Shown here: piece after piece, positions 42,444 through 45,818 of the stretch
How positions within the stretch are numbered: the first letter of the stretch is position 1
How the letters are laid out: every line of letters begins with the position of its first letter
Origin: Microvirga terricola
GTDB lineage: Bacteria > Pseudomonadota > Alphaproteobacteria > Rhizobiales > Beijerinckiaceae
Assembly (NCBI RefSeq): GCF_011777495.1
Contig: NZ_JAATJS010000003.1
Span: forward strand, 62,001-126,000
Direction: 5' to 3'
Length of the DNA: 64,000 nt
Notes under the pieces: model-generated
Database searches by the model: none
Told to the model about the DNA's origin: nothing
What the model saw: the letters and a program-made list of their open reading frames with translations, nothing else
Program-made: the position numbers and the translations under genes

Positions 42444-43646
<1,203 letters not shown>

Positions 43647-43799: not shown

Positions 43800-44438
43800 T
43801 TACAGGTCCAGTAACCCTTGGCGTAGTGGCGAAAAACTGAGTCGATGGAACGGGCAAGGCCCTTCGCTCGCGAGCACCGAAAGATGGGTTTTGGTGCTGT
43901 AGCCCGCATTGCTGGCGAATCCATAGATCGGATAGGCGTCGCTCAGCCGCGTCATCAGCCGGTCTCGCACGACCTTTGCGACGATGGAGGCGGCGGCGAT
44001 GGAGGCGATCAGCGAATCGCCCTGGATCACGGCCTCCGTCTTGCAGGGCAGCTTCGGCGGATCGTTGCCGTCGACGAAGGCCATGTCCGGAATGCACGGC
44101 AAAGCCGCGAAGGCCCGGCGCATGGCAAGCAATGACGCCTGCCGGATATTGATGGTGTCGATCTCGACGTGAGACACGGACGCGATGCCCACATGGGCCG
44201 TGGCGAGGATTTCCGTAAACAACGCCTCGCGCTTCGGCGCTGTCAGCACCTTCGAATCGTTGAGGCCCTGCGGCACTGTATTCAGATCGAGCACCACAGC
44301 CGCCGATACGACCGGCCCGGCCAGTGGCCCGCGACCCACTTCGTCCAGCCCCACGATACAGGAATAGCCCGCTACGCGGGCGGCAAGCTCCCGGTCGATG
44401 CCGGGACCGGAGGGGGCAGGGCGAATCGGCGCGTTCAT
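43800..44438 (-). CDS. rnhB: Ribonuclease HII
   Basis: The product has 212 residues. It removes ribonucleotides from DNA and RNA primers. The acidic site is present: IVGLDEVGRGPLAGPVVSAAV with the Asp-Glu pair, Asp in DMAFVDGNDPP, and Asp in SIVAKVVRDRLM. ccrM is next on the same strand after a 159-base gap holding the ccrM promoter. It is preceded by a palindromic repeat that separates it from the radical SAM gene. Confidence 0.97.
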   Translation of the reverse strand: MNAPIRPAPSGPGIDRELAARVAGYSCIVGLDEVGRGPLAGPVVSAAVVLDLNTVPQGLNDSKVLTAPKREALFTEILATAHVGIASVSHVEIDTINIRQASLLAMRRAFAALPCIPDMAFVDGNDPPKLPCKTEAVIQGDSLIASIAAASIVAKVVRDRLMTRLSDAYPIYGFASNAGYSTKTHLSVLASEGPCPFHRLSFSPLRQGLLDL

Positions 44439-44501
44439 GGGTCGATTAAAAGCGGCAAAGCGTCGGTATTTCCAGCCCCGGCAGCGTCGCGCCTAAAACT
44501 C

Positions 44502-44543
44502 TCCCGTCATTCCGGGCACGCGTGCGCCCCCGGAGTGACGGAG
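44502..44543. repeat. Palindromic element after the radical SAM gene
   Basis: CCGTCATTCCGGG (44504-44516) and CCCGGAGTGACGG (44529-44541) pair with one mismatch, and the loop itself contains the palindrome GCACGCGTGC. Elements with GTCATTCCGGG arms are widespread in alphaproteobacterial genomes. This one lies about 30 bases downstream of the radical SAM gene and probably helps end its transcript. Confidence 0.6.
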
Positions 44544-44574
44544 TACAGCATAGACCCGCAAACGCATCGCTTCA

Positions 44575-45759
44575 TCAAAACAGCGACAACTGTCCTTTAT
44601 CCCTCGCGGGTGGGGTGAAAAGGTCCGTCCGCATCGCCAGCGAGCGGCGCCTGTTGAGGCCAAGGCGCGCCGCTGCGCTTTCGAAGCGGCGGCCGATCAT
44701 CCAGGCGTAGGGGCCGACGCCCTTTTGTCTCACGCTCCAATCGGCATCGTAGTCCTTGCCGCCGCGCGTTTCGCGCAGGATCGAGAAGACGTGGTTGAGC
44801 TTGTCCGGGTAGTGCTCGGCGAGCCAATCGCGCATCAGGTCCTTCAGGTCGTAGGGGAGCCGCAGCAGCACGTAGCCAGCACTGGTCGCGCCCGCCTGAT
44901 GCGAGGCTTTCAGGATCGCTTCGATCTCGTGGTCGTTGATCGCCGGAATGATCGGGGCCACGAGCACTGTCACCGGAATGCCGGCCTCCGACAACTGACG
45001 CACGGTGTCGAGGCGCTTCGCGGGCGAGGCGGCGCGGGGCTCCATCTTGCGCGCGAGCTTCGGGTCGAGCGTGGTGATGGAAATCGCAACTTTAACAAGC
45101 TGGCGCTCGGCCATCTGGCGCAAGATGTCGATGTCGCGTGTGACGAGCGCCGATTTGGTGACGATCCCCACCGGGTGGTTCGTCCGGTTCAGGACCTCCA
45201 AAATGCCGCGCGTGATGCGCAACTTCTTTTCCACCGGCTGATAGGGATCGGTGTTGGAGCCGAGCGCAATGGTGGAGGGCTGATAGCCGGGCGCGCGAAG
45301 CTCCTTCTCCAAGAGTTCCGGCGCGGTGGGTTTGATGAAAATCTTGGTTTCGAAATCGAGCCCCGAGGACAGGCCCTGAAAGGCATGGGTCGGGCGCGCG
45401 AAGCAATAGGAGCAGCCATGCTCGCAGCCGCGATAGGGATTGATCGACTTGTCGAAGCTGAGATCCGGTGAATCGTTTTTCGAGATGATGGTGCGCGGTT
45501 TCTCGACGATGAGCTCGGTCTGGAGCGAGGGCAACCCCTCCTCGACCTCCCAACCGTCGTCAAAGCTCTCCTTCTGCATCGGCTCATAGCGCCCGGTTGG
45601 GTTCGCCACCGCGCCGCGGCCCCGGCGGCGCTCGGAATCGACGCGATAGGCGGGGTCGTCCTTCCGGCGGCGCGCGGCCTCCGCCGCCTCGGCCGCGCTG
45701 CGGGGCGCGGGCTTCAGGCGGGCGGCATCGCGGGCGGGTTCCTTGGCGCGGATATTCAT
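44575..45759 (-). CDS. PA0069-family (SplB-like) radical SAM protein with C-terminal clamp motif
   Basis: The product has 394 residues. The radical SAM cluster is Cys112, Cys116 and Cys119 in GCEHGCSYCF, in the COG1533 group (relatives of spore photoproduct lyase). Family segments are SPDLSFDKSINPYRGCEHG, LGSNTDPYQPVEKKLRITR, VTKSALVTRDIDIL and APIIPAINDHEIEAIL. The first 75 residues are basic and low complexity. The last residues, QLSLF, match the bacterial beta-clamp-binding consensus exactly. The ATG at 45759 has GGAGG 6 bases upstream. The promoter spacer is filled by a perfect LexA box. This suggests an SOS-induced DNA repair role; the substrate is unknown. Confidence 0.88.
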   Translation of the reverse strand: MNIRAKEPARDAARLKPAPRSAAEAAEAARRRKDDPAYRVDSERRRGRGAVANPTGRYEPMQKESFDDGWEVEEGLPSLQTELIVEKPRTIISKNDSPDLSFDKSINPYRGCEHGCSYCFARPTHAFQGLSSGLDFETKIFIKPTAPELLEKELRAPGYQPSTIALGSNTDPYQPVEKKLRITRGILEVLNRTNHPVGIVTKSALVTRDIDILRQMAERQLVKVAISITTLDPKLARKMEPRAASPAKRLDTVRQLSEAGIPVTVLVAPIIPAINDHEIEAILKASHQAGATSAGYVLLRLPYDLKDLMRDWLAEHYPDKLNHVFSILRETRGGKDYDADWSVRQKGVGPYAWMIGRRFESAAARLGLNRRRSLAMRTDLFTPPARDKGQLSLF

Positions 45760-45789
45760 GACGACCTCCAGCGAAAACGAGCTAAGGCC

Positions 45790-45818
45790 ATTTAAGAACA
45801 AAAAGTGAACAAATGCAA
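45790..45818 (-). promoter_or_regulatory. LexA-controlled promoter of the radical SAM gene
   Basis: On the minus strand the sequence has -35 TTGCAT, 17 bases, and -10 TTAAAT. The first implied transcribed bases are about 25 bases upstream of the ATG at 45759. The spacer contains the LexA box at 45796-45810, so a bound repressor would block RNA polymerase. Confidence 0.65.
45796..45810. promoter_or_regulatory. LexA (SOS) box, GAAC-N7-GAAC
   Basis: GAACAAAAAGTGAAC is a perfect match to the alphaproteobacterial LexA direct repeat (GAAC-N7-GAAC, equivalently GTTC-N7-GTTC). It sits between the -35 and -10 of the radical SAM gene and 57 bases upstream of the divergent glycosyltransferase-like gene. 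I saw no other perfect copy in the intergenic regions I scanned. Confidence 0.7.

What the first reader, a model, noticed from the sequence alone, without database searches (positions are those of the whole stretch)
44575..45818. SOS-type promoter on a SplB-like radical SAM gene
A perfect GAAC-N7-GAAC LexA box (45796-45810) fills the spacer of a -35 TTGCAT/-10 TTAAAT pair with 17-base spacing in front of a PA0069/COG1533-type radical SAM gene. The box would block polymerase and be relieved by DNA damage. The gene family is related to spore photoproduct lyase, yet no repair role is established for this branch that I know of. An SOS-induced radical SAM DNA (or RNA-DNA) repair enzyme would be new.
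Basis: partly seen in the sequence, partly recalled or inferred. Interest (0 to 1): 0.8.

Follow-up and report, generated by a model that had tools for sequence, protein, structure and literature searches.

The report
SOS-controlled radical SAM with clamp-binding tail
A gene that carries the DNA-damage (SOS) switch in many bacteria makes a radical-chemistry enzyme of unknown function, and its conserved tail looks like the tag that DNA polymerases use to dock on the replication sliding clamp, which points to work on DNA at replication sites.

Summary
The LexA box is real, and orthologues show it is more than chance: an exact GTTC-N7-GTTC lies upstream of 107 of 110 alphaproteobacterial loci (reversed-pattern control 3) and 75 of 80 in a second set (control 4); 79 of 86 after thinning to 75% identity (control 3). 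In 25 of 35 non-alpha Pseudomonadota a perfect CTGT-N8-ACAG takes its place (control 0). The claimed novelty fails: LexA control of 'splB' in alpha- and betaproteobacteria was predicted in 2012 (PMC3323433), and a LexA-bound, mitomycin-induced radical SAM gene is reported in Streptomyces (PMC9380542). The -35/-10 pair is weak. The gene belongs to NCBIfam rSAM_PA0069 (556.7 bits), not to spore photoproduct lyase (18.3 bits, cut-off 400), and has only the three cluster cysteines. New here: the protein ends in QLSLF, the bacterial sliding-clamp-binding consensus. Qxx[LM][FL] lies in the last 30 residues of 205 of 225 orthologue loci, near-variants in 19, none in one, and in 4 of 4 actinobacterial relatives. 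Best reading: a LexA-repressed, SPL-fold radical SAM enzyme delivered to the beta clamp to act on damaged DNA. Clamp binding and chemistry are inferred, untested.

The parts
44575..45759 (-). PA0069-family radical SAM protein, 394 aa; ATG at 45757-45759, stop at 44575-44577
   Evidence: NF033668 556.7 bits, cut-off 360; PF04055 77.2 bits
44578..44592 (-). codons of the C-terminal QLSLF (residues 390-394), candidate sliding-clamp-binding motif
   Evidence: consensus QL[S/D]LF / QxxLF from PMC12309361
45403..45426 (-). CxxxCxxC (C112, C116, C119), radical SAM iron-sulphur cluster motif; the only cysteines of the protein
45796..45810 (-). LexA box GTTCACTTTTTGTTC
45813..45818 (-). putative -35 TTGCAT (weak)
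   Evidence: not found; conservation
45790..45795 (-). putative -10 TTAAAT (weak)
   Evidence: not found
45765..45769 (-). GGAGG ribosome-binding site, 5 nt before the ATG
43800..44438 (-). neighbour, not claimed as part of the system: ribonuclease HII; an RNase HII match follows on the same strand within 1.5 kb in 68 of 80 orthologue loci L031-L110
   Evidence: PF01351; synteny
42444..43640 (-). neighbour, not claimed as part of the system: DNA N6/N4 methylase with RAMA domain (CcrM-like by eye)

Best explanation
The gene is a standard member of the LexA (SOS) regulon. LexA on the GTTC-N7-GTTC box keeps it low, and DNA damage releases it. Its product is a radical SAM enzyme with a fold closest to spore photoproduct lyase. 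A C-terminal tail ends in a sliding-clamp-binding motif (QLSLF). I propose that the induced enzyme docks on the beta clamp, as translesion polymerases do, and is thereby delivered to damaged or gapped DNA, where the 5'-deoxyadenosyl radical acts on a damaged base or cross-link. It would not use the SPL scheme with a cysteine hydrogen donor. Shown: the box and its conservation, family, cysteine content and tail conservation. Inferred: induction by damage in this organism (about 0.95), clamp binding (about 0.8), DNA as substrate (about 0.65), direct reversal of a lesion (about 0.5).
For: Box: 107 of 110 and 75 of 80 alpha loci (controls 3 and 4); 25 of 35 non-alpha loci have the E. coli-type box instead (control 0), so control survived a change of LexA motif; thinned to 75% identity 79 of 86 (control 3) and 18 of 27 (control 0). 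The genome encodes LexA with a box 61 nt before its ATG, and has boxes at recA, ssb, an imuA-like gene and a dnaE-like gene. Tail: Qxx[LM][FL] in the last 30 residues of 205 of 225 loci and 99 of 113 representatives; within these 99 position 4 is L in 99 (M allowed), position 5 F in 75, position 2 L or M in 77, position 3 S in 46. It occurs in 0 of 2179 other 20-aa windows of the representatives, and in 5.3% of shuffled tails. It also ends 4 of 4 actinobacterial relatives of the Rv2578c type. None of the 13 other radical SAM proteins of this genome has it in its tail, nor do the other 51 ORFs called in the window. The RNase HII tail next door is not conserved. An alphaproteobacterial beta clamp (Acidiphilium) binds C-terminal Q-L-x-L-F motifs (PMC4549789, passages). 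Fold: best PDB matches are SPL, E 1.8e-8, TM 0.51/0.58. Relatives: a LexA-bound radical SAM gene is 19.97-fold up under mitomycin C in S. venezuelae (PMC9380542, Table 1 as shown).
Against: No binding, induction or enzyme data exist for this protein here. Short motifs can be misread: 20 of 225 lack the strict form, 19 of these fit only a relaxed pattern written after seeing them, and one (L253) fits none. The linker before the motif is 8 residues in 75 of 113 representatives, so part of the tail's conservation may be plain relatedness. Residues 381-390 have mean pLDDT 77, so the tail is not clearly disordered. The genome's own DinB- and ImuB-like proteins do not show the strict motif, so there is no positive control from this genome. 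Ten of 35 non-alpha loci have no E. coli-type box. The model is only moderate (mean pLDDT 72.9, pTM 0.73; residues 112-135, including the cluster motif, below 50), so the active site cannot be read from it. A recent Caulobacter SOS paper does not name a radical SAM or splB gene in its main text (PMC12700426, term search; supplements not seen). Nothing identifies the substrate.
Confidence: 0.6

Rival explanations
1. It is a spore photoproduct lyase (SplB) that reverses UV-induced thymine lesions under SOS control, as PMC3323433 suggests.
For: SPL is the best structural match; literature names this kind of gene splB; weak hit to TIGR04070 (E 0.00087).
Against: 18.3 bits against a cut-off of 400. 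PDB titles of SPL mutants C140A and C140S mark a cysteine studied there (its role as hydrogen donor is recalled). The window protein has no fourth cysteine, and no column beyond the cluster has cysteine in more than 33% of 113 representatives. A profile search of PDB sequences at E up to 1 does not list SPL. Spore photoproduct forms mainly in spores, and these bacteria do not make endospores (both recalled).
Confidence: 0.1
2. It is an SOS-induced radical SAM enzyme that modifies something other than DNA (a protein, RNA or nucleotide), and the clamp tail serves regulation or localisation only.
For: Radical SAM enzymes act on very varied substrates (recalled); lower-ranked fold matches are peptide, cofactor and RNA enzymes; no substrate is known.
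Against: SOS control plus a clamp-like tail is the profile of DNA-acting proteins (inference); nearest fold is a DNA repair enzyme.
Confidence: 0.2
3. The tail binds another partner or caps the enzyme's own fold and is not a clamp-binding motif.
For: Short motif; residues 381-390 average pLDDT 77 in the model; linker of 8 residues in 75 of 113 representatives; some members carry departures such as QYRMDL or QLSFLF.
Against: Conserved positions are those of the clamp motif; linker length differs in 38 of 113; in 26 of the 203 loci with the motif in the last 20 residues further residues follow it; actinobacterial relatives share it after a different linker.
Confidence: 0.15
4. The box is a chance match and the gene is not under LexA control.
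For: The 4+4 box alone is expected 2.27 times per window.
Against: Conserved in 107 of 110 and 75 of 80 alpha loci (175 of 183 distinct sequences) and replaced by the E. coli-type box in 25 of 35 others.
Confidence: 0.02

Closest known systems
NCBIfam NF033668 rSAM_PA0069
   Same: 556.7 bits over residues 46-394 against a cut-off of 360; matches the model to its last position
   Different: nothing; it is a member. NCBIfam types the model as hypothetical equivalog and names no function; the clamp-like tail is not mentioned in what I read
'splB' of the published alpha/beta LexA regulons (PMC3323433) and COG1533 of the Bacteroidetes regulon (PMC8565304)
   Same: SOS-controlled SplB-like radical SAM gene; very likely the same gene type in alpha- and betaproteobacteria (inference; I did not see locus tags)
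   Different: those papers read it as a photolyase or DNA repair protein; the passages that I saw do not mention a clamp-binding tail
NCBIfam NF038135 Rv2578c family (Actinobacteria); perhaps vnz_31145 of S. venezuelae
   Same: the window protein scores 229.8 bits against it (cut-off 430); 4 of 4 examined tails carry Qxx[LM][FL]; 2 of 4 have GAAC-N4-GTTC within 400 bases upstream (reversed control 0 of 4)
   Different: below cut-off; different linker; whether vnz_31145 belongs to it was not tested
Spore photoproduct lyase (TIGR04070; PDB 4fhg and others)
   Same: radical SAM fold, closest solved structure
   Different: 18% identity, far below the family cut-off, no extra conserved cysteine
Sliding-clamp clients (DNA polymerases, repair proteins, transposases)
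   Same: QLSLF/QxxLF motif at the C-terminus (PMC12309361, PMC4549789; passages)
   Different: no radical SAM client found in the two paper searches made

Membership tests
NF033668 rSAM_PA0069 | score over curated cut-off of 360 bits | tested here: met
   556.7 bits
LexA regulon (SOS) | LexA box upstream, conserved in orthologues | tested here: met
   107 of 110, 75 of 80, and E. coli-type box in 25 of 35; thinned 79 of 86 and 18 of 27
LexA regulon (SOS) | LexA in the same genome with its own box | tested here: met
LexA regulon (SOS) | LexA binding and damage induction | not testable with these tools
   reported for a Streptomyces radical SAM gene
Spore photoproduct lyase (TIGR04070) | score over curated cut-off of 400 bits | tested here: not met
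   18.3 bits
Spore photoproduct lyase (TIGR04070) | additional conserved cysteine beyond the cluster (hydrogen donor, recalled) | tested here: not met
   three cysteines in all; no other column above 33% cysteine in 113 representatives
Spore photoproduct lyase (TIGR04070) | similar fold | tested here: met
   top PDB matches, TM 0.51/0.58, on a model of moderate confidence
Sliding-clamp client | QxxLF-type motif at or near a terminus | tested here: met
   205 of 225 strict, 19 near-variants, 1 without; that it is exposed was not shown
Sliding-clamp client | physical binding to DnaN | not testable with these tools
   complex prediction and binding assay not available

The most novel reading that the evidence does not exclude
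PA0069- and Rv2578c-type proteins are clamp-tethered radical SAM DNA repair enzymes: induced by SOS, recruited to the beta clamp like translesion polymerases, and removing a lesion or cross-link at stalled or gapped replication sites by radical chemistry different from spore photoproduct lyase. This would be the first radical SAM client of a sliding clamp known to me.
Probability: 0.45. Interest if true: 0.85.

Novelty: new variant of a known kind. Interest (0 to 1): 0.6.

Why it matters
This type of radical SAM gene is a recurrent SOS gene in several phyla, yet its function is open and the standing guess (photoproduct lyase) fits poorly. A conserved clamp-binding tail would place the enzyme at the replication fork and turn an open question into direct tests: does it bind DnaN, and does removing the tail remove its effect on damage survival or mutation? 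If so, bacteria would have a repair chemistry delivered by the replication clamp.

Tried and rejected
Significance from the window or genome count of the 4+4 box: not informative. The longer own-genome motif was chosen after seeing the list, so it counts as support only.

Promoter hexamers as evidence: rejected as weak.

RNase HII neighbour as a second clamp client (Microvirga tail QGLLDL): rejected, its tail is not conserved. An RNA-DNA repair role from the rnhB synteny was considered; synteny is common (68 of 80 and 23 of 30 loci within 1.5 kb), but the two genes are 136 nt apart here and synteny says little on function.

Own translesion polymerases as positive control for the motif: failed or inconclusive. 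The DinB-type protein has no Qxx[LM][FL]; it has QKGLAL near its end, a possible six-residue form by my reading. The ImuB-like protein shows none.

A different LexA box in the ten non-alpha loci without CTGT-N8-ACAG: one (L227) has TTAGTAATAATACTA, matching a Xanthomonas-type box that I recall; nine show no match.

Distant relatives: the two archaeal, the Paenibacillus, Bacteroides and Monoglobus proteins have no such tail; Gemmatirosa ends QLSLGI, which fails the strict pattern; the Roseburia relative ends QQSLFD. The tail listing used a wrong frame for L292 and L293 and was replaced. The strand choice was wrong for L302 and L311 and was mended.

A structural re-ranking (pdb_via) was not available. 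A profile search of PDB sequences gave only weak hits.

Literature calls. No mention of the gene was found by term search in PMC13114513, PMC9578287 and PMC12700426. Two sources that I recall as placing PA0069 and Rv2578c in LexA regulons could not be checked: the Pseudomonas paper is not held, and no held paper has Rv2578c with LexA; they are recall only.

Full report
What is there. The window holds on its minus strand a 394-residue radical SAM protein (ATG 45757-45759, stop 44575-44577). It scores 556.7 bits against NCBIfam rSAM_PA0069 (cut-off 360) and only 18.3 against spore photoproduct lyase (cut-off 400). Its closest listed relatives are in Microvirga (88% identity to M. alba). In the family, 56 of 60 genomes searched have a match over the cut-off; in the class 92 of 190; in the phylum sample 111 of 299.

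The box. Taken alone it is not unusual (2.27 expected per window; 108 against 95 for the reversed pattern in the genome). I therefore used orthologues. In 110 alphaproteobacterial loci (L031-L140; 80, 30), 107 have an exact GTTC-N7-GTTC, on either strand, in the 450 bases before the aligned start, and the reversed pattern occurs in 3. The other three have one mismatch, but so does the control in 54 of 110, so that counts for nothing. In a second set of 80 alpha loci, 75 have the exact box within 400 bases (control 4); the misses are L157, L168, L196, L204 and L253. In 35 non-alpha Pseudomonadota (35 of the 39 same-phylum genomes over the cut-off) none has the alpha box, but 25 have a perfect CTGT-N8-ACAG (control 0). 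The sets hold a few repeats: 225 loci give 218 distinct sequences, of which 175 of 183 alpha ones have the box; thinned to 75% identity it is 79 of 86 (control 3), and 18 of 27 non-alpha (control 0). Control has thus been kept while LexA changed its site. Some Microvirga loci have two boxes in tandem.

The circuit in this genome. LexA is encoded (181.9 bits), with a box 61 nt before its ATG. Exact boxes also lie at recA and ssb (named), at an imuA-like gene (47.8 bits, below its cut-off of 150) that is followed by an imuB-like gene, and at a gene that I take for dnaE by eye (two boxes). The longer form GTTCNNNWWWTGTTC has 11 sites against 0 for its reverse, among them those of recA, the imuA-like gene and this gene; it was chosen after seeing the data. 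Several other sites of that form have no obvious SOS gene.

The promoter. The hexamers TTGCAT and TTAAAT exist with a 17-base spacer, but the scan finds no promoter, and a TTG beside the box is found in 10 of 78 thinned orthologues against 7.7% at random positions. The printed Microvirga loci share CTTG just before the box. I take steric block by LexA as likely but not shown by these hexamers.

Not new. PMC3323433 (section 8 read) predicted LexA control of splB in alpha- and betaproteobacteria. [quoted passage not shown] PMC7739468 (passages) lists a radical SAM protein in the Gram-positive core regulon. PMC9380542 (passages and part of Table 1) reports vnz_31145, a radical SAM gene, LexA-bound and 19.97-fold up under mitomycin C. 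PMC3765255 (passages) links SplB-like genes to SOS neighbourhoods.

The tail, which is the new observation. The protein ends in QLSLF. PMC12309361 (passages) gives the clamp-binding consensus as QL[S/D]LF or QxxLF, with positions 1, 4 and 5 most critical. PMC4549789 (passages) says that clamp clients often carry it at the C-terminus, and shows binding by an alphaproteobacterial clamp. Of 225 orthologue loci, 203 have Qxx[LM][FL] in the last 20 residues and 205 in the last 30; 19 more fit a relaxed pattern that I wrote after seeing them (QLSLI, QLSFL, QYRMDL and the like); one, L253, fits none. Among 113 representatives at 75% identity the figures are 98, 99, 13 and 1. Positions 1, 4 and 5 are restricted by the pattern itself; within it, position 4 is L in 99 of 99 though M was allowed, position 5 is F in 75 and L in 24, position 2 (free) is L or M in 77, position 3 (free) is S in 46. 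In the alignment, made without the pattern, the Q390 column is Q in all 113; for L253 that is probably an alignment artefact, since its linker would be 81 residues. The pattern is absent from 2179 other 20-residue windows of the representatives, and arises in 5.3% of shuffled tails. The linker between F381 and Q has 8 residues in 75 of 113 and 5 to 18 in 37 others, and some proteins continue past the motif. In 35 non-alpha loci 32 have the strict pattern. Four actinobacterial relatives (Streptomyces, Nonomuraea, Arthrobacter, Tsukamurella) all end in it: QLTLL, QLRLL, QEPLF, QESLF. Three of these were scored over their matched part against the sister family Rv2578c: two pass its cut-off of 430, and the Arthrobacter fragment gets 422.0; Tsukamurella bears that name in its record.

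Controls on the tail. The 13 other radical SAM proteins of the genome have no such tail. Of 52 ORFs of at least 150 aa called greedily in the window, only this one has it. The adjacent RNase HII has no conserved tail. Against: the DinB- and ImuB-like proteins of this genome, expected clamp clients, do not show the strict motif. The predicted structure shows no helix or strand after residue 365; blocks 381-390 and 391-394 average pLDDT 77 and 50, so disorder is not clear.

Chemistry. The best structural matches are spore photoproduct lyases (E 1.8e-8, TM 0.51/0.58, 18% identity), on a model with mean pLDDT 72.9 in which residues 112-135 are poorly modelled. Only C112, C116 and C119 are cysteine; no other column has cysteine in more than 33% of representatives. 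The cysteine hydrogen donor of SPL (recalled; mutants C140A and C140S appear in the PDB titles) therefore has no conserved counterpart. Residues conserved in at least 95% of representatives include N107, Y109, R110, E113, H114, R122, H125, D135, E137, D171, Q174, K202, D209, E240, R242, R249, R300, W312 and R358, a polar set that could bind substrate (inference).

Judgement. SOS control: about 0.95, already known for the gene type. Clamp binding: about 0.8, inferred. DNA as substrate: about 0.65. Direct lesion reversal: about 0.5. Two searches of the held papers found no work that joins radical SAM proteins with a clamp-binding motif: one search gave none, and one search gave five papers whose titles and abstract starts do not suggest one; I did not open those five. 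Subscription papers are mostly not held, so absence from print is not proven.

Noticed in passing
L257:2154-4001 (own genome C9, box at 670375-670389): A LexA-type box lies about 150 nt before a DGQHR/DndB-domain protein (DNA phosphorothioation-related families): possibly an SOS-linked DNA modification or defence gene.
   Followed up: partly
L269 (own genome C9, box at 297821-297835): A LexA-type box lies between a gene that looks like def (by eye) and a gene with similarity to rmuC (44.9 bits, below cut-off).
   Followed up: partly
L264, L265 (own genome C11, boxes at 338159 and 458683): LexA-type boxes lie upstream of dnaB (262 nt) and gyrA (412 nt); whether they act on these genes is open.
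   Followed up: no
L260:2010-2984 (own genome C10, box at 268543): A LexA-type box directly precedes a DUF6456 protein, a candidate SOS gene of unknown function.
   Followed up: no
window 43800-45759: Radical SAM gene and rnhB lie in the same order and strand within 1.5 kb in 68 of 80 loci L031-L110 and 23 of 30 loci L111-L140.
   Followed up: yes
L287 (viral contig IMGVR_UViG_3300011665_000024): A contig classed as viral encodes a relative ending in QLDLF plus four residues; prophage cargo or host DNA is not distinguished.
   Followed up: no
L253: The only orthologue without a tail motif also lacks an exact LexA box and is among the more divergent at 48% identity.
   Followed up: no
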